The notes under the pieces are model-generated. The model saw only the letters and a program-made list of their open reading frames with translations. It ran no database searches and was not told the DNA's origin. A DNA stretch of 64,000 nucleotides from Bedellia somnulentella. Lineage: Eukaryota > Arthropoda > Insecta > Lepidoptera > Bedelliidae. The stretch is taken from the NCBI GenBank assembly GCA_963576735.1, contig OY755177.1:7192001-7256000 (forward strand). The letters run 5' to 3'. This document shows positions 2-63,682 of this stretch, piece by piece. The first letter of the stretch is position 1, and the number at the start of each line of letters is the position of its first letter. Made by a program: the position numbers and the translations under genes.

Positions 2-655
2 ATGACGGATGCGGATGACCAAATTGATATAAGGCGAGGGATTTTCCAGGGCGATTGCCTGAGTCCAGTTTGGTTTTGCTTGGCCCTGAATCCTCTAAGT
101 ACACTCTTGGAGAATTTGGGGACGGGCTTTCAGTTTCGGAGAGGCGGACCACGCTTGCCTCATCTCCTTTACATGGATGACCTGAAGCTTTACGCCCCCA
201 CGGCTGACAGATTGGCGGAGTTACTGACGATCACTAACGATTTCAGTGGTTCCGTCAAGATGGAGCTCGGGGTCGATAAGTGTGCGGTCATTCATGTTGA
301 GAAGGGGCATGTCATGCACTCTGATGGTGTCGATGTCGGCACCAATCATTTGAGGGCACTCTCCGAGGCTGAAACATACCGGTATCTGAGCATGTCACAA
401 ACCATCGGTGTGAAGGTGGCAGACGTGAAACAGGGTGTTTGCGAGGAGTTTTATGAACGCCTGAAAAGTGTGCTTAATAGCTACTTGTCAGGCGTTAATA
501 AGATCCGAGCCATTAACTCCTGGGTCATGCCTGTACTGATGTACACATTTGGCGTGCTCAGATGGACTCAGACCGAACTCGACGCTCTGGACAGACGAGT
601 CCGCACGATGATGACCTCTCACCACCACACTTCCGCGGGATATACAATCTCATAA
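2..655 (+). pseudogene. Reverse transcriptase palm/thumb fragment of the Dong-like LINE
   Basis: 217 residues of RT with the box-4 motif RRGIFQGDCLSPVWF near residue 12 and the catalytic YMDD near residue 57, then thumb sequence ending in VRTMMTS. YMDD and FQGDCLSP are typical of R4/Dong/Rex6-type LINEs. The reading frame ends at 653-655 inside the left arm of the palindrome, so the last residues are an artefact of inverted sequence and not RT. The true continuation (HHPRSS...) begins in the right arm near 699. Confidence 0.85.
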
Positions 656-755
656 CCGACGACCTCGGATGATGCATTCGATGAGAAGTCATCATCGTAT
701 GCATCATCCGAGGTCGTCGGTTATGAGATTGTATATCCCGCGGAAGTGTGGTGGT
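621..755. repeat. Near-perfect palindrome, 64-bp arms, 7-bp loop
   Basis: Bases 621-684 are the reverse complement of 692-755 with a single mismatch (677 vs 699); the loop is 685-691. The right arm is the genuine LINE coding strand, reading MHHPRSSVMRLYIPRKCGG in the frame starting at 699. The left arm is an inverted copy of it, so the palindrome arose by an inverted duplication inside the element. Confidence 0.95.
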
Positions 756-1720
756 CGAGTGCCAAAACCATGCACAACCGCGAGGTATGCAACCTCAGAA
801 ACTATTTTTTGACGATGACGGATGATAGTATTCGGGGAGAGGTGGTCGCTAGTGATAAAGGACTGACTCCCTTATCATTGGCCTCACAGGATTGGCGAAC
901 CCCGGAGGTACTTAGCACCTCTGATCGGGAGTCCGTATGGAAAGAGAAGGAGCTGCATGGGAGGTTTTACAAGGTACTTCACGAACCTTTCGTGGACCGT
1001 AAAGCCTCCCTGCATTGGCTGCGTTTCGGGGACCTCTTTGGGGAAACCGAAGGTTTTGTCTGTGCAATACAAGACCAGGTTATCAAGACGCGGAACTATC
1101 GGAGATACATCCTAAAGGACGGTACCACAGACATCTGTCGAGCATGTGGCCGTCCCGGAGAGTCACTTAGGCATGTTATTTCCGGTTTTTCGGCTCTTGC
1201 TAACTCTGAGTACTTGCACAGACACAACCAAGCAGCCAAAATCCTACATCAGGAGCTCGCTCTGAAATACGGACTCTTGCAACAGAGGCTGCCGTATTAC
1301 AAGTATCTGCCGGAGCCAATCCTAGAAAACGACCGTGCCAAAATCTATTGGGACCGATCCGTTATCACGGACAGGACTATTCTAGCGAATAAGCCTGATA
1401 TCGTGGTATGGGATCGGTCGCAGTCGAGGGTATTTCTAGTGGATGTCACTATCCCTCATGACGAGGGTCTCGTGAAAACCGACACCGAGAAGCGTCGGAA
1501 ATATCTCGATCTGGCTCACGAGATCACTGACATGTGGGGTGTGACTTCGACAGAAATAATCCCAATTGTTTTGTCCGCGAACGGGTTAATTCCAATCAGC
1601 CTCGCGACCAACTTGAGGCGGTTGGATTTCTGTGGCGTGTCGGTTCCAGCACAGATGCAGAAAGCGGTGCTGCTCGATACGGCTCGGATCGTCCGTCGGT
1701 TCTTGAACCTGACTCCCTGA
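699..1720 (+). pseudogene. Zinc-knuckle and restriction-like endonuclease part of the Dong-like LINE
   Basis: After RLYIPRKCGG the frame shifts by one base near 757-760, then reads SAKTMHNREV onward to the stop at 1718-1720. A CxxC...H knuckle lies at about 1135-1240 (CRACGRPGESLRHVISGFSAL); the family normally has SGCS where this copy has SGFS, so one metal ligand is lost. The restriction-like endonuclease follows: KPDIVVWD about 1393-1416, VDVTIP about 1438-1456, then EKRRKY. In the family this domain nicks the target DNA. The ATG at 746 is not a real start. Confidence 0.85.
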
Positions 1721-1825
1721 CCCCGACCGACACTGTTCTTTTGTCGGGGAGTACAGCCTCTCCCATTTAAAATTTATATTTTCTTTTTCTGCCATGGGAG
1801 AGGCGAGGAACTAAATGTCATACCC

Positions 1826-1843
1826 AATAATAATAATAATAAT
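1826..1843 (+). repeat. (AAT)n microsatellite at the LINE 3' end
   Basis: Six AAT units follow the LINE 3' UTR without any poly(A). This is either the Dong target repeat or the element's own tail. Confidence 0.9.
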
Positions 1844-1922
1844 TCTTTAATCAGATTAAAATTGATACATAGTTTACAAGAGTCAGCTGGTCCCAAACTA
1901 GGCTCATCGCCTGTATCTAATA

Positions 1923-2609
1923 ATGCTAAACTTAACTCATCTGCACCTGTTCATCAAGCAAGAAGCTACTGCCTCAGCTGTGAGACTAAATGCAAACAAA
2001 CTATGGAAATCCAACAAAGTCCCTCACGCCGAAATCCTTACCAGGATGGTAAAAGAGGCACCTAGAATATCAGCTGTGAACGACAGGATTCCCAAACTAT
2101 ACCTCTTTGACAAGAAGTACAAAATACAGCTGACAGAAAATCCGAACGAAGGCCTCAATGAAAGGGAAGTGAGGATATTTACAGATGGCTCTAAAACTAA
2201 ATCTGGCACAGGAGCGGGGGTATTCTCCGAAGACTTGCAGATAAAAATAGCTAGACCAATGGGCACCTGGAATTCGATATTTCAGGCAGAATGCTTCGCA
2301 ATCATACTCGCCGCCCAAGCAGTAACAGCGAGGAAAATCAGAGAACTTCCAATTCGTATTCTCTCGGACAGCAAATCAGTCCTACAAGCCCTAATGAGCT
2401 ACGAGTGCAAATCAGGGCTCATATATGAATGTCACAAAGCCCTAACGGCGATAGGGCAAACCAATGAAACTACCATACAATGGATCAAAGGACACAGCGG
2501 ATCACGCGGCAATGATGCAGCAGACGAATTGGCCAGAAGAGGATCAGATACCCCGTTTACAGGCCCAGAACCATGTCTGCCTCTACCAAACGATCAGTTA
2601 AAACTATAG
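1923..2609 (+). pseudogene. RNase H domain of a LINE polyprotein
   Basis: Starts with HLFIKQEATASAVRL, a conserved region between RT and RNase H in R1/LOA-like LINEs. RNase H follows with all four catalytic acids in context: FTDGSKTKSG (about 2178), FQAECFAI (about 2281), ILSDSKSV (about 2359) and WIKGHSGSRGNDAADELA (about 2482). In the family it removes the RNA strand during reverse transcription. The frame is lost near 2580-2590 and continues in the next pseudogene entry. Confidence 0.85.
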
Positions 2610-8748: not shown

Positions 8749-8990
8749 TATGTGATAGTTAGGCGTTTTCAACATTTGTATTCTATCTGAAAAGGTAGAC
8801 AAGTGGCCTTCCGAATAGTAAAAATTCGGAGGTAGGAAACGCAAACACTACTTAAACGTGTAAAAGAAATAAAGGATAGAAGAATTTCGCAGTGGCAGCC
8901 AATTGACACGGTAGCTCAATTGGCAGAGCGTCGGGGCGTTTACCCGAGGTCGCGGGTTCGTTCCCCGCCTGTGTCGAAATTTTTCTTTAC
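8703..8990 (+). repeat. Repeat C, unit 1 (tRNA-bearing)
   Basis: About 290 bp: start agtaattatccccaaatgag, then gtgatagttaggcgttttca, a small hairpin CTTCCGAAT...ATTCGGAGG near 8812-8835, and a tRNA-like cloverleaf at the 3' end followed by T-rich sequence. Further units lie at 28514 and 44387-44803. Confidence 0.85.
8905..8976 (+). tRNA. tRNA-like cloverleaf in repeat C, unit 1
   Basis: 72 nt fold as a tRNA: acceptor GACACGG/CTGTGTC (7 pairs, one G-U), D stem GCTC/GAGC, anticodon stem TCGGG/CCCGA with a 7-base loop GCGTTTA, T stem GCGGG/CCCGC with loop TTCGTTC. The loop would place GTT at 34-36 (Asn-like), but position 33 is C, where tRNAs have U. Pol III A- and B-box-like sequences are present. 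It may be transcribed; a role in translation is doubtful because of C33 and because it sits in a dispersed repeat. Confidence 0.5.
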
Positions 8991-17154: not shown

Positions 17155-17455
17155 TTGAGATGGTTTGGGCACATAGAGAGGATGGATGACAGTAAATTGG
17201 TGAAAGAGATCTATAGAGCCAATGTGGAAGGTAATGTTAGTAGAGGAAGACCTCGGAGGACACATTTAGATCAAATAGAAAATGTGCTCAAAAAGGCAGG
17301 TGTCCGAAGTATGAAGAATAAAAGAGCATGTATGAAAAGATTGATGGATGTGAATGAAGCTAGAGAGGTTTGCCAGGATCGTACAAAGTGGCGATCTATA
17401 GTCTCTGCCTACCCCAATGGGAACTAACGGCGTGAGAATATGTATGTATGTATGT
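17155..17455 (+). pseudogene. RTE LINE 3'-end fragment, frame intact
   Basis: 91 codons from LRWFGHIERMDDSK to the stop after SAYPNGN (17425-17427), nearly identical to the C-terminus of the intact RTE at 56360, followed by the RTE tail gaactaacggcgtgag and (TATG)n. 5'-truncated, as is usual for LINE copies. Confidence 0.9.
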
Positions 17456-18561: not shown

Positions 18562-18575
18562 TTTATTTATATTTT

Positions 18576-18824
18576 TGCCGTGTAGTGTCGGCTTAGAGTA
18601 ACACTACCCCATTTCTACCCGTGGGTGATCGTAAGAGGCGACTAAAGGTATAGGGGCTTTTTAAGTGATCTTTGGGCAATGTGGTTGGAGACCCGTCACC
18701 AAAATCATTTTTATTACCATATTTTCCCCAATCAACTTCCAAAACTGGCTAAGCAATTTCTCACTCCAAAGCTCTGGCTATCCCGTTGAGGGATTTATAG
18801 CCGTGAGTATATGTTTGTATGTAT
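18576..18824 (+). mobile_element. SINE-A copy, full length
   Basis: Head gtgtagtgtcggcttagagt, centre gcaatgtggttggagacccg, hairpin and tail gccgtgagtatatgtttgta are all present. Confidence 0.9.
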
Positions 18825-28513: not shown

Positions 28514-28770
28514 GAATTATGTGATAGTTAGGCGTTCTCAACATTTGCATTCTATCTGAAAAGGTCAACAAGTGGCCTTCCGAAATTGTAAAAAAAACGG
28601 AGATAGGGAACGAAAACACTACTTAAAAGTGTAAAAGATACAAAGGATAGAAGAATTTCGTACTGGCAGCCATTGACACGGTAGCTCAATGGCAGAGCGA
28701 ACGGGGGCGTATACCCGAGGTCGCGGGTTCGATTCCCGCCTGTGTCGAAATTTTCCTTTCCTTTATTTAA
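28514..28770 (+). repeat. Repeat C, unit 2
   Basis: Starts at aattatgtgatagttaggcg, lacking the leading ccccacatgagg part; the internal hairpin has decayed (cttccgaaattg...acggag). Confidence 0.85.
28675..28746 (+). tRNA. tRNA-like cloverleaf in repeat C, unit 2
   Basis: Acceptor, D and T arms as in unit 1, T loop TTCGATT. An extra G in the anticodon stem breaks its pairing, and the loop holds GTA where unit 1 has GTT. Likely a pseudogene. Confidence 0.4.
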
Positions 28771-30823: not shown

Positions 30824-31073
30824 TTTTTGCTGTGTAGTGCCGGCCTAGAATAGCACTACCCCATTTCTTCCGGTGGGTGTACGTAAGAGGCGACTAACGG
30901 TATTGGGTTTTTTAAGGGATCATTGGGCGATGCGGTTGGAGACCCATCACCAACAACTTTTATTTTAACATCATCTCCCCACTCATAATTCCAAAAGTGG
31001 CTGAGGAATTTCTAATTTCTTAACTCTGGCTACCCCTTCTAGGGATTTATAGCCGTGAGTATATGTATGTATG
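30824..31073 (+). mobile_element. SINE-A reference copy with perfect 11-bp target-site duplication
   Basis: 250 bp flanked by tacgaccacat at 30813-30823 and 31074-31084. Layout: head gctgtgtagtgccggcctag, centre gcggttggagacccatcacc, aggaatttctaatttcttaa, then ggctaccccttctagggatt and tatagccgtgagtatatg(tatg)n. The stretch ggttggagacc is one base from the Pol III B-box GGTTCRANNCC, suggesting a tRNA-related promoter, but no A-box or cloverleaf is clear. There is no protein frame. GGCTA/TAGCC closes around CCCC...GGG as a two-tier tail structure. Confidence 0.9.
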
Positions 31074-31977: not shown

Positions 31978-32233
31978 TCCGCTGTGTAGTGCCGGCTTAC
32001 AATGTCGCTACCCCTTTCTACCCACGGGTGTCGTAAGAGGCGACTAAGGGTATTGGAGCTTTTTATTGGATTTTTGGGCGATGCGGTTGGAGCCCCATCA
32101 CCAAAAACCTTTATTATTACCATCTTTTCCCCACTCAACTTCCAAAAGTGGCTGAGGAATTTATAATTCCTTAGCTCTGGCTACCCCTTCTAGGGAAATA
32201 TAGCCGTGAGTATATGTATGTATGTATATGTAT
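31978..32233 (+). mobile_element. SINE-A copy, full length
   Basis: gctgtgtagtgccggcttac through (TATG)n; all landmarks present. A possible short duplication, ttttatt, flanks it. Confidence 0.9.
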
Positions 32234-33530: not shown

Positions 33531-33580
33531 TATATTCTTCTTCATAATTAAAAATATTAATATTATGTTGTTCTTCATAA

Positions 33581-33827
33581 ACTGTGTAGTGTCGGCTCAG
33601 AATAGCACTACCCTATTTCTTCCCGTGGATGTACGTGAGAGGTGACTAAGGGTATTGGAGCTTTTTAATGGATTTTTGGACGATGCGGTTGGAGACCCAT
33701 CACCAACAACTCTTATTTTACCATCTTCTCCCCACTTAACTTACCAAAGTAGCTGAAGAATTACTAATTCCTTAGCTCTGGCTATCCTTTCTAGGGATTT
33801 ATAGCCGTGAGTATATGTATGTATGTA
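33581..33827 (+). mobile_element. SINE-A copy, full length
   Basis: ctgtgtagtgtcggctcaga to gccgtgagtatatg(tatg)n. Confidence 0.9.
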
Positions 33828-44386: not shown

Positions 44387-44803
44387 ACCCGAGGTCGCGG
44401 GTTCGATTCCCGCCTGTGTCGAAATTTTTCTTTCCTTTATTTATTCTTTATTTATTAGTAATAATCCCCACATGAGATTTTCATGAACAAAAAGATTTAA
44501 ATTATGTGATAGTTAGGCGTTTTCAACATTTGCATTCTATCTGAAAAGGTAGACAAGTGGCCTTCCGATTAGTAAAAATTCGGAGGTAGGAAACGCAAAC
44601 ACTACTTAAACGTGTAAAAGAAATAAAGGATTTCGCGCTGGCAGCCATTGACACGGTAGCTCAATGGCAGAGCGACGGAGGCGTATACCCGAGGTCGCGG
44701 GTTCGATCCCCGCCTGTGTCGAAATTTTTCTTTCCTTTATTTTTTTTTATTTATTAGTAATAATCCCCACATGAGGTTTTCATGAACAAAAAGATTTAAA
44801 AAA
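44387..44803 (+). repeat. Repeat C tandem array
   Basis: Three consecutive pieces: the end of a unit (44387-44456), a whole unit (44457-44755) and the start of another (44756-44803), with a period of 299-300 bp. The array is cut at about 44803 by the CGACTAGTCG element. Confidence 0.9.
44650..44721 (+). tRNA. tRNA-like cloverleaf in repeat C array
   Basis: GACACGG acceptor with CTGTGTC, GCTC/GAGC D stem, GCGGG/CCCGC T stem with loop TTCGATC. The anticodon stem is weakened (acgga vs cccga), loop GCGTATA. A partial copy (T arm and acceptor only) lies at 44387-44421. Confidence 0.4.
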
Positions 44804-46652: not shown

Positions 46653-46714
<62 letters not shown>

Positions 46715-46761
46715 GCCTTCCCCAAAGGGAAATAATGGCGTGAGTATATGTATGTATGTAA
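46464..46761 (+). mobile_element. RTE 3'-end fragment split by repeat D and (TA)n
   Basis: 46464-46532 reads like gatggatgtgaatgaagcta...gccaggatcgtaaaaagtgg of the RTE end. Repeat D plus a long TA run fills 46533-46707. The RTE then resumes with tagtctctgccttccccaaa and its (TATG)n tail at 46708-46761. Confidence 0.8.
46654..46707. repeat. (TA)n microsatellite
   Basis: About 27 uninterrupted TA units, the longest in the window. Confidence 0.95.
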
Positions 46762-51685: not shown

Positions 51686-53246
51686 GTTGAGAACTTCTAC
51701 GGTAGGCTATATGCCAGTCATGCCGCACCACCTGAGGAACACGACACCGACCCCAGAGCTCCATTAACTCGCCACTTCACCGAAGATATCCCAGACGTCG
51801 ACCTGGACGAGATAAGATCGGCCCTGAGACAGCTTAAAAACAGCAAAGCTCCGGGTGATGACGGGGTAACGACAGAGCTTCTAAGGGCAGGAGGTACACC
51901 TGTACTGAGAGCCCTGAAAGATCTGTTTAACAACGTCATCTACAGTGGAACTATTCCGGAGGCGTGGAGCGAGAGCGTCGTGGTCTTGTTCTTCAAAAAA
52001 GGAGATAAAACCCTTCTCAAGAACTACAGACCGATCGCGCTCTTGAGCCACGTATATAAGCTGTTCTCACGGGTCATCGGCTGGGTTTCGAAAAGGCTTT
52101 AGCACCGTTGACCACATCCACACAGTACGGCAGATTATACAGAAAACCGAAGAGTATAATCAGCCACTGTGTCTAGCATTCGTGGACTATGAAAAAGCCT
52201 TCGACTCCATCGAAACCTGGGCTGTTCTACAATCCTTACAGCGTTGCCGAATCGACTGGCGCTACATTGAGGTGTTGAGACACCTGTACAATGCTGCGAC
52301 CATGACCGTCCAAGTACAGGATCAAAAGACAGAACCCATCCAACTGCAGCGAGGGGTGAGACAGGGGGATGTCATATCCCCGAAACTGTTCACGAATGCG
52401 TTGGAGGACGTCTTCAAGATGATGAACTGGAACGGAAAAGGTATATGTGTCAACGGCGAGTACATCTCACACCTCAGGTTTGCGGACGACATAGTCGTTA
52501 TGGCAGAAACGCTGGAGGATCTCGGCGGGATGCTTAGTAGCCTAAACTTAGCCTCTCGGCGAGTGGGGCTTGGCATGAACTTGGACACGACGAAAATCAT
52601 GTTCAATCGTCTTTTTCAGCCAAGACCAGTTCTTGTCGAGGGAGCAGAGCTCGAAGTTGTGCCGGAGTACGTCTACCTAGGTCAGACGCTACGACTCGGT
52701 AGAAACAACTTCGACAAAGAGGCTGCAAGACGCATCAAGCTGGGCTGGGCTGCTTTTGGAAAACTTCGGCATATCTTCTCCTCGGCCATCCCACAATGTC
52801 TGAAGACTAAGGTTTTCAACCAGTGCGTCCTGCCAGTGTTAACGTATGGTGCGGAAACGTGGACACTCACGGCTGGACTAGTCCACCAATTCAAAGTCAC
52901 TCAAAGAGCGATGGAGCGAGCTATGCTCGGCATCACTCTGTTGGATCGCATCAGAAATGACGTGATCCGACAGAGAACTAAAGTGGCCGACGTAGCTCAT
53001 CGGATCAGCAAGTTGAAGTGGCAGTGGGCTGGTCACATCTGCCGAAGAACCGATAACCGCTGGGGAAGACGAGTTCTTGAGTGGAGACCACGCACTGGCA
53101 GACGCAGTGTGGGGCGCCCTCCAGCCCGCTGGACCGACGACCTAAAGCAGGTGGCCGGGAGTGGTTGGATGAGGCTGGCCGAGGATAGGAAGAGGTGGCG
53201 CGCCATGGGAGATGCCTATGTCCAGCAGTGGACGAGTGTGGGCTGA
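51686..53246 (+). pseudogene. RTE reverse transcriptase half
   Basis: VENFYGRLYAS, KNSKAPGDDGVTTELL, NYRPIALLSHVYKLFSRVI; then about 25 codons are missing at ~52080 (the frame restarts at GFRKGFSTVDHI). FVDYEKAFDS, GVRQGDVISPKLF, FADDIVVMA (catalytic FADD) and YLGQTLRLG follow, and the C-terminal KLKWQWAGHICRR to the stop at 53244. The catalytic box is kept but the deletion inactivates it. Confidence 0.85.
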
Positions 53247-53609
53247 TGATGATGATGATGATGATTTGTAGAATTGTCGTAGAATCTTGACATGAGATTG
53301 AGCACATGTCGGATTTGCGTGACAATTGTAGTATTTCGTGGTTGATACACGCGTATTTCAAAATGGCTCACCATGCGAGTAGTAGTGACGCTAGTGATAG
53401 TAACAGTGATCTTGATGAATTTACAATTGTAGCACTTGTCGTGTTGGTGAAATTAGAGCCAGATGTCTGAATTTTGTGCACACCACGGCCGCGAACTGTA
53501 CAAAACGATACCTGAACCAAATTTCTAGCTTAACTCATCGCGCCACAGGCTTCCGGGCAAGAAAGAGGCTTACAGAAATAATATACATAGATTATTGTAA
53601 TTGGTTTTA

Positions 53610-53857
53610 CATACATACATATACTCACGGCTATAAATCCCTAGAAGGGGTAGCCAGAGCTAAGGAATTAAAAATTCCTCAGCCACTTTTGGAAGTTACG
53701 TGGGGATTAGATGGTGAAATAAAGGTTTTTGGTGATGGGTCTCCAACCGCATCGCCCAAAAATCCCTTTAAAGCCCCTATACCGTTAGTCGCCTTTTACG
53801 TACACCCACCGGAAGAAATGGGGTAGTGCTATTCTAAGCCGGCACTACACAGCTATC
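53610..53857 (-). mobile_element. SINE-A copy with 9-bp duplication
   Basis: 248 bp flanked by ttggtttta at 53601-53609 and 53858-53866. All landmarks intact. Confidence 0.9.
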
Positions 53858-56294: not shown

Positions 56295-56327
56295 ATTATA
56301 ATATATTACTAACTTGCTATTAAATTT

Positions 56328-59300
56328 AACATAACATAACATAACATATACTCACGCCATTAATTCCCATTGGGGTAGGCAGAGACTATCGATCGCCACT
56401 TCGCACGATCCTGACAAACCTCTCTAGCTTCGTTTACATCCATCAATCTTTTCATACATGCTCTTTTATTCTTCATACTTCGGACGCCAGCCTTTTTGAG
56501 CACACTCTCAATTTGGTCCAAGTGTGTTCTCCGTGGTCGTCCTCTACTAACATTACCATCCACACTAGCTCTATAGATCCCTTTTACCAATTTTCTATCA
56601 TCCATCCTCTCTATGTGCCCAAACCATCTCAACATTCCTTTTTCTATCTTTCTTACAATATCATCTTTCACACCACACTTTTCACGAATAACACTATTTC
56701 TCACTCGGTCACACAATCTAACATTACAAATTTTTCTGAGGGACCTCATCTCTACTGCATTCACTCTGCTCTCATGCTTCTTCTGCCACACCCAACATTC
56801 GCTTCCATACATAAGCGTAGGAACAAGAACAGCATCATGCACAGCCATTCGGGCCTTTTCAGACACCGATTGACTGATCATTAGGCTATTCATTGCTCCA
56901 TTTACCGCATTACCCTTTTTCACTCTTCTTTCAATGTCTTCATCACATTTTCCATCCCTTGTAAACAAACTTCCCAGATATACAAACTCCTTCACCTGTT
57001 CCACATCCTTACCATCAATCGCAATCACGCATTCTGTCACATCTTCCTGTCTCTCAAAAACCATCGTTTTGGTCTTATCCACATTCACCCTCATTCCCTT
57101 TCTTACAAAAGACTCACATGCAATATTCATCATCTTTTGCAACTCTTCTGCCGATGATGCAAGTAGCACTTGATCGTCAGCATACAAGAGGCATTTAATG
57201 ATGAATCCACCCATTCTTAGTCCATAATCACTTTCACGCAACTCTGTCAAACAGTCATCCATGAACAAATTGAAGAGCCACGGAGAAGCAACACATCCCT
57301 GTCGGACACCCCTAGAGATTCCGAACCAGTCAGTGTTTTCCCCGTTTACTCTTACACATGCACTAGAATCCTCATAGAGTGATACCAATGCACGTATAAG
57401 TTGACTCCCCAAACCGAACTTGGATAACACCTCCCATAAACACTTTCTTACCACCCTATCATACGCCTTCTCTAAATCAATGAAGGAGCAATACACCTTT
57501 TGGTTCTTAGCTAAGAACTTTTCGGTGATGCTCCTTAGAGAGAAGATTTGATCCATACATCCCATTCCTTTCCTAAATCCCGCTTGCACATCCCATATTT
57601 TCTCATCAGTTTCATTCATCACTCTTTCAATCAGTACCTTAGCATACAATTTACCAACAATGCTGAGTAAACTGATGCCGCGGTAGTTTTTAGCCTCTTG
57701 GTGTGACCCCTTTCCTTTATATAGAGGCACAATCACCGCCTTGCACCAATCTCGTGGAACTTTGCCACTCGACCAGCATTTTTGGAAAAGGAAGTACAAC
57801 CAAGAAGCCACCAACCCTTTACCAGCCCTCAGCATTTCGATAGTAATCCTATCATACCCTGCCGCCTTCCCTACTTTCATACTTTTCATTGCTTTCATTA
57901 TTTCTTCCATACTAATCTCACTGTCACTGAAATCACCCATCTCTTCGTTCCAATCAACATTACTGTCGATTGGCGGAGAAATGGATGCATCCTCTTTTTC
58001 AAACAGTCCCTCAAAATAATTCTTCCATACCCGTTTCATGCTACTTCCATCCGTCGCCAATTCACCCTGTTCATCTCTTATTACACTCACTCTCGTGTTT
58101 TGGGAAACTCCCTTTTCCTTCCGGATATACTTCCAGAATAACTTTTGGTTATTCCGGAAATTATCAGAAAGTTTCCTCTCACACCACTCTTGCAAATCCC
58201 GCTTTTTCTTTTCTATTTTCTTCTTCACCTCATTCTTAACTCTCTTATATTCATCTTCACTTTTCTGCACTACATCGTCAGTCACACTCGCATTCATCCG
58301 TTTACTAGCTTTAATCGCTAGTAAATCTAACCACGCTTTCTTCTTATCTCCAACCGCCTCTTTCACAACTTTATCCCACCAACTTGTTGGTGGTCTATTT
58401 GACCTTTTACACACTCCACAAACTTCCGTCGCACATTCAACCATTGTCGATTTGAGCACATCCCATACTTCTTCTATTTCCATTTCATCCTTCATCTCCA
58501 CGCAACTTAGTCTATCATCCAATTTCCTCACGTATTCATCTCTGATATTTTCATCTTCTTGCAGTTTTTCCACTTTTATTCTCGCAAAATCCGTTGTTGA
58601 CACTTTAGGCCTGTGACGCCAACGCGTACACAGACCCCTTAATCGTGATATAACGAGAAAGTGATCTGTGCCAACGTTCGTGCCCCTATAGACCCTGGTG
58701 TCAACAACCTTTGCTCTCAGCCTTTCATCAACGATCACAAAATCAATCATACTTCTCTCGCTTCCCCTCTGTCTTGTATACATATGGATATCTTTGTGTT
58801 TAAACAACGTGTTTGTAACACAAAGATTCCTCTCCAAACATACCTCAATCAATTTCTCACCATTCTCATTCATCCTTTGATCGCCAAACTTTCCTAAAAC
58901 TCTTTCGCAACCGTTGCGTGACACACCAACCCAGCCATTAAAATCTCCTAACATTATAAGTCTCTCATTCTGATCACACCCATTCACAACATCGTCTAAC
59001 AGATTCCAAAACTCCTCCCTCTCGGATAGGGATTTAGACATGTCCGGAGCATAAACGCAAATTATGCGCATCCGGACTAGTCCCAATTTCACCTTAATCC
59101 ACAGGAGCCTTGGACTCACACATTCGTAATCTTTCATACACTGAGCCATCCTTTCAGATATCAGAAGTCCCACTCCTTGGCTAGCTCGGTCACTGTCAGC
59201 GACTCCAGACCAGATTGCTGTGATGTTGCCAAGTTGTGAAACTTCCTTTCCCTTACGCTTCGTCTCATTTAAACATAGAAAATCCAGTTTTCTTTCATTC

Positions 59301-59435
59301 ATAATCATACATACTTCATCTAATTTTTCAAACATTCCTCCACATACATTCATCGTACTGAAGCGGGTCTCTTTAGCCCACTTTTCGCCCCGTGAGAAAC
59401 CACGGCGTGATGAGTGGCGAGCTACATCGCCGCTC
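56328..59435 (-). mobile_element. RTE LINE, near full length, recent insertion
   Basis: Flanked by gctattaaattt at 56316-56327 and 59436-59447, a perfect 12-bp duplication. The minus-strand element ends SAYPNGN-stop, a 31-base 3' UTR (taatggcgtgagtatatg) and (TTATG)n. Its left part is coding up to the 5' duplication, so the 5' end is slightly truncated or the element has almost no 5' UTR. 5' and 3' fragments of the same family occur at 4075, 17155 and 46464. Confidence 0.95.
56360..59353 (-). CDS. RTE endonuclease/reverse transcriptase polyprotein, intact 997 codons
   Basis: AP-type endonuclease at residues 1-240: NVCGG, LNETKRKG near 28, GDFNGW 136-141, DFVIVDERL near 204, GTDH 228-231. RT from about 480: GKAAGYDRIT, NYRGISLL, FIDLEKAYD 624-632, GVRQGCVASPWLF 682-694, catalytic YADD 724-727, VYLGSLFT. 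The C-terminal region is LRWFGHIERMDD and GRPRRTHLDQIE. In the family it nicks genomic DNA and copies its own RNA there. No stop or frameshift. The frame stays open above the first ATG (GEKWAKETRFST precedes MNVCGG), so translation probably starts upstream. It lies antisense in intron 3 of the receptor gene. Confidence 0.93.
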   Translation of the reverse strand: MNVCGGMFEKLDEVCMIMNERKLDFLCLNETKRKGKEVSQLGNITAIWSGVADSDRASQGVGLLISERMAQCMKDYECVSPRLLWIKVKLGLVRMRIICVYAPDMSKSLSEREEFWNLLDDVVNGCDQNERLIMLGDFNGWVGVSRNGCERVLGKFGDQRMNENGEKLIEVCLERNLCVTNTLFKHKDIHMYTRQRGSERSMIDFVIVDERLRAKVVDTRVYRGTNVGTDHFLVISRLRGLCTRWRHRPKVSTTDFARIKVEKLQEDENIRDEYVRKLDDRLSCVEMKDEMEIEEVWDVLKSTMVECATEVCGVCKRSNRPPTSWWDKVVKEAVGDKKKAWLDLLAIKASKRMNASVTDDVVQKSEDEYKRVKNEVKKKIEKKKRDLQEWCERKLSDNFRNNQKLFWKYIRKEKGVSQNTRVSVIRDEQGELATDGSSMKRVWKNYFEGLFEKEDASISPPIDSNVDWNEEMGDFSDSEISMEEIMKAMKSMKVGKAAGYDRITIEMLRAGKGLVASWLYFLFQKCWSSGKVPRDWCKAVIVPLYKGKGSHQEAKNYRGISLLSIVGKLYAKVLIERVMNETDEKIWDVQAGFRKGMGCMDQIFSLRSITEKFLAKNQKVYCSFIDLEKAYDRVVRKCLWEVLSKFGLGSQLIRALVSLYEDSSACVRVNGENTDWFGISRGVRQGCVASPWLFNLFMDDCLTELRESDYGLRMGGFIIKCLLYADDQVLLASSAEELQKMMNIACESFVRKGMRVNVDKTKTMVFERQEDVTECVIAIDGKDVEQVKEFVYLGSLFTRDGKCDEDIERRVKKGNAVNGAMNSLMISQSVSEKARMAVHDAVLVPTLMYGSECWVWQKKHESRVNAVEMRSLRKICNVRLCDRVRNSVIREKCGVKDDIVRKIEKGMLRWFGHIERMDDRKLVKGIYRASVDGNVSRGRPRRTHLDQIESVLKKAGVRSMKNKRACMKRLMDVNEAREVCQDRAKWRSIVSAYPNGN

Positions 59436-59447
59436 GCTATTAAATTT

Positions 59448-60296: not shown

Positions 60297-60664
60297 ACAA
60301 CCGTGATAGCCCAGTGGGTAGAACACTCGGTTATCGTGCAAACGACTAGTGTTCAAATCCTGGGTCGGGCCTACACCAATTTGTCTTTTCTAAAGATATA
60401 TGTGTGGTTAATTTATCATGGTTGTTAACGGTGAGGGAAAACATCGTGAGGAAACCCACATGGCTGAGTTGTACTTAGTCATGTGACAGTGTATTCGTAC
60501 AAAACGGCGATAGGCCTGCCCCCTATCACATGAGTACACTATCCATGCAAAACGTGGGTACTCTGAACACCGGGTGACAAAGTCACGTGATGTTCAGAAG
60601 TATTAGTACCTCTGCCAACCCCTCCGGGGATATTCGGCGTGAACGTTTATGTTTATGTATTTAT
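60297..60664 (+). mobile_element. SINE-B reference copy with 14-bp duplication
   Basis: Flanked by gtataagtatatta at 60283-60296 and 60665-60678. Head gtgatagcccagtgggtaga with A-box-like TAGCCCAGTGGG and B-box-like GTGTTCAAATCC, so Pol III transcription is likely. The body follows with ggtgagggaaaacatcgtga (a core common in lepidopteran SINEs), then cgtgatgttcagaagtatta. The tail is ctctgccaacccctccgggg, atattcggcgtgaacgttta and TTATG-type repeats. 368 bp, non-coding. Confidence 0.92.
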
Positions 60665-63323: not shown

Positions 63324-63682
63324 TGCGACATGATAGTCCAGTGGGTAAGAACACCCGCCCGAAAAACAGAAGGGCGTGAGTTCCAATCCTGGGACGGGCC
63401 TACACCAATTTGTCTTTTCTAAAGTCATATGTGTGGTTAATTTATCATGGTTGCTAACGGTGAGGGAAAACATCGTGAGGAAACCCACATGGCTGAGTTG
63501 TACTTAGTCATGTGACAGTGTATTCGTACAAAACGGCGATAGGCCTGCCCCCTATCACGTGAGTACACTGTCTAAGCAAAACGTGGGTACCTTCTCTGGA
63601 AACTAGATGGCGCTTGCCATGTGAGTTCAGGAGTATTGGTACCTCTGCCAACCCCTTCGGGGATAAAACGGCGTGAACGTTT
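63324..63682 (+). mobile_element. SINE-B copy, subfamily B2, with 13-bp duplication
   Basis: 359 bp flanked by taatttacccaaa at 63311-63323 and 63683-63695. Carries the B2-specific segment (ctagatggcgcttgccatgt) in place of the cgtgatgtt block of other copies; its head also has ccgaaaaacagaagggcgtg like the 11101 copy. Confidence 0.9.

What the first reader, a model, noticed from the sequence alone, without database searches (positions are those of the whole stretch)
56328..56400. RTE and two SINE families share a structured 3' tail with a compensatory base pair
RTE ends GCC-TACCCCAATGGGAATTAAT-GGC-GTGA; SINE-A ends GGC-TACCCCTTCTAGGG..TATA-GCC-GTGA; SINE-B ends GCC-AACCCCTTCGGGG..TTC-GGC-GTGA. 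All are preceded by CTCTG and followed by ATGT or TTATG repeats. The middle pair of the outer stem is C-G in RTE and SINE-B but G-C in SINE-A, so base pairing and not sequence is kept. This suggests an RNA structure recognised by the RTE enzyme and used by both SINEs.
Basis: partly seen in the sequence, partly recalled or inferred. Interest (0 to 1): 0.8.

Follow-up and report, generated by a model that had tools for sequence, protein, structure and literature searches.

The report
Moth LINE-SINE shared 3' RNA hairpin
In what looks like a moth or butterfly genome, a young LINE (a jumping gene that makes its own copying enzyme) and two parasitic short elements end in the same small RNA hairpin, with one base pair swapped but still matching, which fits a handle by which the LINE enzyme recognises what to copy; the principle is known, this hairpin is a new example.

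Summary
The LINE is RTE-type (window 56328-59435, minus strand) with an intact 997-aa ORF and a 12-bp target-site duplication. SINE-A and SINE-B end in the same ~35-nt motif. Exact patterns hit 77,449 (TACCCC type) and 28,651 (AACCCC type) places in the 549-Mb genome; reversed patterns hit 0.

CTCT(G) and GTGAG pair with each other, giving a 6-7-bp lower helix with one bulged U under the CCC/GGG hairpin. The middle pair is C-G in RTE and SINE-B, G-C in SINE-A.

That flip is the only family-level compensatory change seen: one event. No A-U or U-A family was found (35 and 15 exact hits). The inner stem does not covary between families, and folding z-scores are only -0.4 to -2.1. In the RTE most of the hairpin is also the coding end (SAYPNGN-stop).

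A second RTE lineage (71-78% aa identity) keeps the hairpin but has (AAGT)n instead of (TATG)n repeats. No LINE with the G-C tail was found.

Best reading: a stringent-type LINE/SINE recognition hairpin with partner RTE. It is a new member of a known kind; pairing-based recognition is plausible, untested.

The parts
56360..59353 (-). RTE-type LINE ORF, 997 aa, endonuclease + reverse transcriptase; stop codon TAA lies inside the tail hairpin
   Evidence: ORF; Pfam RVT_1 7e-37, Exo_endo_phos_2 5.7e-10
56351..56384 (-). RTE tail hairpin CTCTGCC..CCC(AAT)GGG..GGCG(U)GAG
   Evidence: sequence; MFE fold -8.5 kcal/mol, z -1.15
56328..56350 (-). 3' terminal repeats TATATG(TTATG)3TT of the RTE
   Evidence: sequence
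56316..56327 (-). 3' copy of the RTE target-site duplication AAATTTAATAGC
59436..59447 (-). 5' copy of the RTE target-site duplication AAATTTAATAGC
17403..17436 (+). tail of a second RTE copy (AACTAACGG subtype, as in the ~91% identical sister subfamily)
46711..46744 (+). RTE-type tail string directly behind a (TA)n run; RTE origin not confirmed by upstream similarity
   Evidence: absent from the BLAST list
53624..53659 (-). SINE-A tail hairpin, G-C middle pair (SINE body lies upstream, towards higher coordinates)
30826..31059 (+). SINE-A copy with tail hairpin at 31024; TSD TACGACCACAT
31978..32210 (+). SINE-A copy with tail hairpin at 32175; no TSD of 9 bp or more found
33579..33811 (+). SINE-A copy with tail hairpin at 33776; no TSD of 9 bp or more found
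18574..18807 (+). SINE-A copy with tail hairpin at 18772; no TSD of 9 bp or more found
60300..60643 (+). SINE-B copy (tRNA-like head by eye, tail hairpin at 60610, C-G middle pair); TSD GTATAAGTATATTA
63327..63677 (+). SINE-B copy with tail hairpin at 63643; TSD TTAATTTACCCAAA
52182..53270 (+). comparison: another LINE (RVT_1, 29% aa identity to the RTE) that ends in (TGA)n without this hairpin

Best explanation
The motif is the 3' recognition hairpin of a young RTE-type LINE, borrowed by two unrelated SINEs. A lower helix (5' CUCUGxC against 5' GyCG-u-GAG, the lower-case u bulged), an A/U-rich internal loop and an apical CCC/GGG stem-loop stand just before the terminal UAUG-type repeats. The RTE reverse transcriptase most likely grips this hairpin on its own RNA and on the SINE RNAs and starts target-primed reverse transcription in the repeats behind it (stringent-type recognition). 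Shown: the shared motif, its foldability, one pair kept through a change on both sides, TPRT marks (TSDs, variable 5' breaks, repeats) and the youth of the RTE. Inferred: protein binding, that the pairing itself is what is recognised, and that this RTE moved the SINEs.
For: Motif counts with zero reversed-pattern controls. RTE: all 73 scored 600-aa matches (of 72,322 first-look candidates) at 99-100% identity, 70 without an internal stop. Among 13 of the 30 fetched RTE copies, most of them taken for a visible 5' break, 7 have TSDs of at least 9 bp (no random control run for these). SINE TSDs of at least 9 bp: 15 of 43 SINE-A and 4 of 9 SINE-B, against 4 of 270 random controls (Fisher 2e-13). 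RNAalifold on 25 window tails finds the bulged 6-bp helix unprompted; pair 6-30 is GC 13, CG 11, UG 1. Outer helix: 85% of cells paired against 31-42% when slid by 1-3 columns; covariation score 0.214 against 0.109 shuffled, 0 of 500. A second RTE lineage (tblastn 71% aa over 249; 78% over the last 207 codons) keeps CTCTGCCTACCCCxATGGG..GGCGTGAGTAT while its repeats changed to (AAGT)n. In that comparison synonymous codons agree in 27 of 30 in the last 40 codons against 68 of 119 upstream (p 6e-4). The SINE copies seen mostly carry TATG/TTATG-like repeats as the window RTE does, not AAGT.
Against: The covariation is one family-level event in one pair; the two other pairs with a both-side change owe it to one copy each, and 226 of 500 shuffles reach the number of such pairs. 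The shuffle test does not allow for relatedness. MFE z-scores are weak: RTE -1.15 and -1.28, SINE-A -1.68 to -2.10, SINE-B -0.36. SINE-B lacks the outermost pair (GTGAA). In the RTE context the change C to G on the 5' side alone costs only 0.2 kcal/mol through another fold, so the first step of the flip may have needed no rescue. The 40-codon cut was chosen after seeing the bins: the last 10 codons alone give 9 of 9 against 86 of 140 (p 0.027), and the 91%-identical sister subfamily gives p 0.40, 0.06 and 0.06 in the three copies tested. Low synonymous change could also come from recombination between lineages. Part of the conservation in the RTE is explained by coding.
Confidence: 0.7

Rival explanations
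1. Shared tail by descent and primary-sequence recognition only: the SINEs captured the RTE 3' end and the enzyme reads the sequence (CTCTG, ACCCC, GGG, CGTGA), not the pairing; the complementary flip in SINE-A is chance.
For: Most of the motif is invariant in sequence between families. Only one pair differs on both sides at family level. Folding energies are not unusual. A random change on both sides would be complementary about one time in three (own estimate). In the RTE context one of the single steps costs only 0.2 kcal/mol.
Against: CTC/GAG and the x-y pair lie in one helix in RTE and SINE-A, and in SINE-B but for the outermost pair. SINE-A changed both sides of one pair and neither alone at family level. 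In single-strand folds of one RTE and one SINE-A tail the other one-sided changes at this pair cost 2.7-7.2 kcal/mol and the swapped pair costs nothing.
Confidence: 0.2
2. Coding constraint: the tail is conserved because it encodes the RTE C-terminus (SAYPxG.. and, in relatives, ..A-stop); the SINEs carry it only as a relic of their birth.
For: 15 of the 120 proteins returned have AYP followed by only 1-7 residues, and 11 of these end SAYPxGxxA-stop. The window RTE stop lies inside the hairpin.
Against: The SINEs, too short for such an ORF, keep both arms in tens of thousands of exact hits. The 3' arm GGCGTGAG lies after the stop in the window RTE and in the sister subfamily yet is the same as in the AAGT lineage, where it is inside the ORF (L104; these loci were picked by pattern). 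All 9 synonymous codons of the last 10 codons are unchanged against L104.
Confidence: 0.1

Closest known systems
HaSE1/HaSE3 SINEs and HaRTE1.1, Helicoverpa armigera (PMC3272025; abstract, parts 1-2 of 6 of the text and search passages seen)
   Same: tRNA-derived lepidopteran SINE whose last 43 bp are 82% identical to the 3' end of an RTE LINE; a second SINE with the same tail; partner inferred from the shared tail
   Different: that pair ends in TGA repeats; stem and loop do not occur in the main text, so no tail hairpin is described there; the tail sequence itself was not available to compare
PxSE5 / SfSE1 and PxLINE1, Plutella and Spodoptera (PMC8010984; passages seen)
   Same: lepidopteran SINEs sharing a 3' end with a LINE; SfSE1 is listed with tail (ATGT)n and SlituSE1/SlittSE1 with (ATGTT)n, like the repeats here
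   Different: stem and hairpin do not occur in the main text; sequences are in figures not held, so identity with SINE-A or SINE-B is untested
Bm1 SINE of Bombyx mori (recalled, not from a call)
   Same: SINE-A head and the frame GTC-TACCCC..GGG..GAC-GTGA resemble my memory of Bm1; if right, the middle pair there is U-A, a third type
   Different: could not be verified here (one search found no paper with the Bm1 strings); no DNA fetched
UnaL2 / ZfL2 stem-loops and SINE partners (PMC6510757; passages seen)
   Same: 3' stem-loop of a LINE, in some organisms shared with SINEs, needed for retrotransposition
   Different: eel and zebrafish LINEs (L2 clade by recall); loop GGAUA recognised; experimentally tested, unlike here
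Monocot L1 and SINE 3' hairpin with compensatory mutations (PMC3747384; passages seen)
   Same: same kind of evidence: stem supported by compensatory changes across LINEs and SINEs
   Different: L1 clade in plants, five compensatory changes marked, stem sequence variable
Metulj SINE and an RTE LINE, Heliconius (PMC6685494, PMC4016481; passages seen)
   Same: lepidopteran SINE suspected to be moved by RTE from tail similarity
   Different: sequences not shown in the passages; no tail hairpin described in the passages seen

Membership tests
RTE-type non-LTR retrotransposon (LINE) | ORF with apurinic-type endonuclease and reverse transcriptase, very short 3' UTR, short terminal repeats | tested here: met
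   997-aa ORF with Exo_endo_phos_2 and RVT_1; 9 bases between the stop and TATATG, 15 before the first TTATG
RTE-type non-LTR retrotransposon (LINE) | phylogenetic placement in the RTE clade | not tested
   no tree made; no named RTE reference was compared; the RTE name rests on domain order and recall
RTE-type non-LTR retrotransposon (LINE) | TPRT marks: TSD, 5' truncation | tested here: met
   similarity to L060 breaks at many different places; TSD of at least 9 bp in 7 of 13 copies
SINE | Pol III promoter head | tested here: inconclusive
   SINE-B head has box A/B-like TAGCTCAGTGGGTA and GGTTCAAATCC by eye; neither ARAGORN nor Rfam calls a tRNA there; SINE-A head not assigned
SINE | 3' tail shared with a LINE, TSDs | tested here: met
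   TSD of at least 9 bp in 19 of 52 copies against 4 of 270 controls
Stringent-type LINE/SINE pair with 3' recognition hairpin | same foldable hairpin in LINE and SINE, supported by compensatory change | tested here: inconclusive
   common helix; one family-level compensatory pair only; weak folding z-scores
Stringent-type LINE/SINE pair with 3' recognition hairpin | hairpin required for retrotransposition by the LINE enzyme | not testable with these tools
   needs a bench assay

The most novel reading that the evidence does not exclude
The hairpin is a double-use sequence: its 5' arm and apical stem encode the C-terminus of the RTE protein while the RNA serves as the reverse-transcriptase recognition site, and the 3' arm stays fixed whether it is coding (AAGT lineage), past the stop (window RTE) or, judging from protein ends only, read in other frames in other Lepidoptera. 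In the RTE the middle pair is held because it falls in an Ala codon; SINE-A, which codes for nothing, was free to swap it and swapped both sides, a natural compensatory-mutation experiment carried by tens of thousands of copies (77 G-C of 100 rows listed out of 77,449 hits).
Probability: 0.4. Interest if true: 0.55.

Novelty: new member of a known kind. Interest (0 to 1): 0.42.

Why it matters
How LINE enzymes choose their RNA has been tested in few systems (those I met in the papers: R2, UnaL2/ZfL2, SART1). Here a LINE with many intact near-identical copies, two unrelated parasites and a 34-nt hairpin with one swapped pair give a ready test of structure against sequence recognition in the RTE type, one of the two clades said to predominate as SINE partners (PMC3747384, passage). 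It also accounts for a string with more than 100,000 exact hits in this genome.

Tried and rejected
Other LINE as partner: G-C tails preceded by GT (22 in the genome) or by a base pair other than the SINE-A upstream AG, pattern BH (268, the 22 included): 6 + 7 distinct loci read, all SINE-A by eye; the other 255 were not read. The other LINE of the window (52182-53270) ends in TGA repeats and lacks the hairpin.

Third pair type in this genome: x = A or T gives 1,625 exact hits against 77,449 for any x. In the 100 rows listed (59 A, 41 T, by eye) the partner is mostly the unchanged C or G; 4 of the 59 A rows have the complementary T. A-U: 35 hits genome-wide, about 3.6% of an estimated 960 x=A copies, against 5 of 83 x=G rows with T as partner: no excess. 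U-A: 15 hits. So no A-U or U-A family by these exact patterns.

DNA from other species: viral contigs by pattern gave 14, 25, 1 and 0 loci, none similar to the window by BLAST; genome contigs by pattern gave 9 loci in bacterial records, not examined further; profile scans confirmed no relative. Bm1 could not be checked. P0016 as query (44 scored of 53,152 candidates) led to the ~91% sister subfamily in all 6 loci read, not to a new lineage.

Energetics do not by themselves support a structure; the shuffles of my own script mix poorly and I use those. Not in print: eight full-text searches of an open-licence library listed no description of this hairpin; most of those papers I saw as listings only. 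Notebook slips: entry 2 calls the 30 loci full-length with identical tails (several are 5'-truncated, four have one spacer change); entry 3 says 14 AYP proteins (15); entry 1 states 'all three reading frames' before any DNA.

Full report
WHAT IS THERE. The window comes from an unnamed 548.9-Mb genome. The closest named relatives of its LINE are moths and butterflies (Phthorimaea, Plutella, Tuta, Parnassius, Dendrolimus, Choristoneura, Eumeta); more distant hits bear names of a catfish, a snail, a crab and bacterial assemblies. That the host is lepidopteran is my inference. On the minus strand a LINE with an intact 997-aa ORF (59353-56360) carries an endonuclease and a reverse transcriptase domain. 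It is flanked by a 12-bp duplication, AAATTTAATAGC, at 59436-59447 and 56316-56327, so the insertion spans about 56328-59435. Its 3' end reads CTCTGCCTACCCCAATGGGAATTAATGGCGTGAGTATATG(TTATG)3. Two shorter families end in nearly the same way: SINE-A (about 230 bp) and SINE-B (about 345 bp, with box A- and box B-like strings by eye).

NOT CHANCE. CTCTGNCNACCCC with up to two mismatches occurs 39 times in the window against 3.96 +/- 1.99 in shuffles. In the whole genome the exact pattern CTCTGNCTACCCC-(2-7)-GGG-(5-9)-NCGTGA has 77,449 hits and the AACCCC form 28,651; the reversed patterns have none. Of the first 100 rows of the former, 83 have x=G (77 with y=C), 16 x=C (all y=G), 1 x=A; of the first 100 rows of the latter all but 3 look like SINE-B by eye. 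These are exact-match counts, so lower bounds.

STRUCTURE. RNAfold and RNAalifold place CUCUGxC against GyCG-u-GAG with one bulged U, leaving the CCC/GGG stem as the apical hairpin. In SINE-A two more pairs (U-A, A-U) extend it; in SINE-B the outermost pair is lost (GTGAA). On 25 window tails (23 distinct) the outer helix is paired in 85.0% of cells against 30.9-41.5% when slid by 1-3 columns, and the covariation score is 0.214 against 0.109 shuffled (0 of 500 reach it). The number of pairs changed on both sides (3) is reached by 226 of 500 shuffles, and two of the three rest on one copy each. The signal is the pair at columns 6-30: CG 11, GC 11, UG 1 of 23 distinct rows. It is one event between families. 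On the 3' side, older SINE-A copies align to the RTE better with a C inserted (GGC to GGCC) than with a substitution, the younger form without a gap; either way both sides changed and pairing holds. MFE z-scores are -1.15 and -1.28 for two RTE tails, -1.68, -2.10 and -2.10 for three SINE-A tails and -0.36 for SINE-B: no support alone. In folds of single tails, one-sided changes at the pair cost 2.7-7.2 kcal/mol, except C to G on the 5' side of the RTE tail (0.2, another fold); the swapped pair costs nothing.

WITHIN FAMILIES. If the middle base is A or T (1,625 hits), the first 100 rows show the partner mostly unchanged, as expected of decaying dead copies. Complementary A-T and T-A combinations number 35 and 15 in the whole genome, no more than independent decay would give by a rough estimate. 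So no third pair type shows in this genome. From memory, the Bombyx Bm1 SINE has GTC..GAC, which would be a U-A type; I could not verify it.

CODING OVERLAP. In the window RTE the frame runs GTC TCT GCC TAC CCC AAT GGG AAT TAA TGG CGT GAG: 5' arm and apical stem are coding, the 3' arm follows the stop. Of the 120 proteins returned, 15 have AYP followed by only 1-7 residues, and 11 of these end SAYPxGxxA, with K, Q or E before the last A. That fits xAG GCG TGA, i.e. the same GGCGTGA in another frame, but I had no DNA for them; the other 105 end otherwise, many being more distant or cut short. In this genome a second lineage (L104: tblastn 71% aa over 249 residues; 78% over the last 207 end-aligned codons) reads on: CCC GAT GGG AAT AAT GGG CGT GAG TAT AAG TAA, with (AAGT)n repeats. 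The 13 loci of that tail type read (L094, L102, L104-L114) have the hairpin by selection, since they were picked by pattern; L115 is an odd RTE-like tail. Between L104 and the window RTE synonymous codons agree in 27 of 30 in the last 40 codons and 68 of 119 upstream (p 6e-4); the cut at 40 was made after seeing the bins. The last 10 codons alone give 9 of 9 against 86 of 140 (p 0.027). Against the 91%-identical sister subfamily the last 10 codons agree 10 of 10, but the last-40 test gives p 0.40, 0.06 and 0.06 for L123, L124 and L125 (3 of 6 fetched copies tested). This is moderate evidence for RNA-level constraint; recombination is not excluded.

PARTNERSHIP. The RTE is young: all 73 scored matches (of 72,322 first-look candidates) align over 600 aa at 99-100%, and 70 of them have no internal stop. 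The 30 loci taken have the same tail apart from single changes in the spacer of four; 25 have TATG repeats, 4 TTATG, 1 other. TSDs of at least 9 bp: RTE 7 of 13 (chosen from the 30, no control), SINE-A 15 of 43, SINE-B 4 of 9, random controls for the SINEs 4 of 270. SINE repeats are mostly TATG- or TTATG-like in the copies seen, as in this RTE and not as in the AAGT lineage. LINEs with the SINE-A form of the tail were sought by excluding the SINE-A upstream pair AG: 22 and 268 hits, and the 13 distinct loci read are all SINE-A. The other LINE of the window ends in TGA repeats. Among the LINEs examined, the RTE is thus the nearest partner for both SINEs.

MECHANISM. Most likely: RTE protein binds the hairpin of RTE or SINE RNA, the UAUG-type repeats lie at the nicked target, and reverse transcription starts there. 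Steps shown: common tail, foldability, one compensated pair, TPRT traces. Steps inferred: binding, use of the RTE enzyme by the SINEs, pairing as the recognised feature.

WHAT IS KNOWN. Shared LINE/SINE tails in Lepidoptera are published (HaSE1 with HaRTE1.1, PMC3272025; PxSE5 and SfSE1 with PxLINE1, PMC8010984; Metulj with a suspected RTE, PMC6685494). Hairpins as recognition sites are established for eel and zebrafish LINEs (PMC6510757) and, with compensatory changes, proposed for monocot L1 (PMC3747384). I saw passages of these and, for PMC3272025, the abstract and parts 1-2 of 6. None of the eight searches listed a description of this hairpin. It is a new member of a known kind; the coding overlap and the single clean flip make it useful rather than surprising.

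Noticed in passing
L094, L102, L104-L114 (own genome): A second RTE lineage keeps the hairpin but ends in (AAGT)n/(TAAG)n instead of (TATG)n, and in L104 the ORF runs through the hairpin into the repeats: the repeat unit changes while the hairpin stays.
   Followed up: partly
L058-L087 (own genome): Near-identical RTE copies end in either (TATG)n or (TTATG)n, and some TSDs begin with bases that continue the repeat (e.g. L072, L078), as if priming slips on the repeats at insertion.
   Followed up: no
window 17403-17436 and L123-L128: A sister RTE subfamily (~91% aa identity in 6 loci read, open frames of about 1,057 codons) with tail AACTAACGGCGTGAGAATATG exists beside the window's subfamily: two subfamilies with intact-looking copies.
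   Followed up: partly
window 8904-8977, 28674-28748, 44650-44721: tRNA-like sequences (Rfam tRNA 47-50 bits; ARAGORN Asn at 8904) each overlap a repeat family (D11), perhaps another tRNA-derived element.
   Followed up: no
window 52182-53270: A LINE fragment (RVT_1, 354 aa) ending in TGATGA repeats, the repeat type published for HaRTE1-like LINEs.
   Followed up: partly
window 2-2609: ORFs with RVT_1 and RNase H matches near each other, remains of another retroelement.
   Followed up: no
L090, L091 (own genome): SINE-A-like heads joined within 100 bases to GTCTCTGG + tail, lacking most of the body, perhaps template jumps to the tail during reverse transcription.
   Followed up: no
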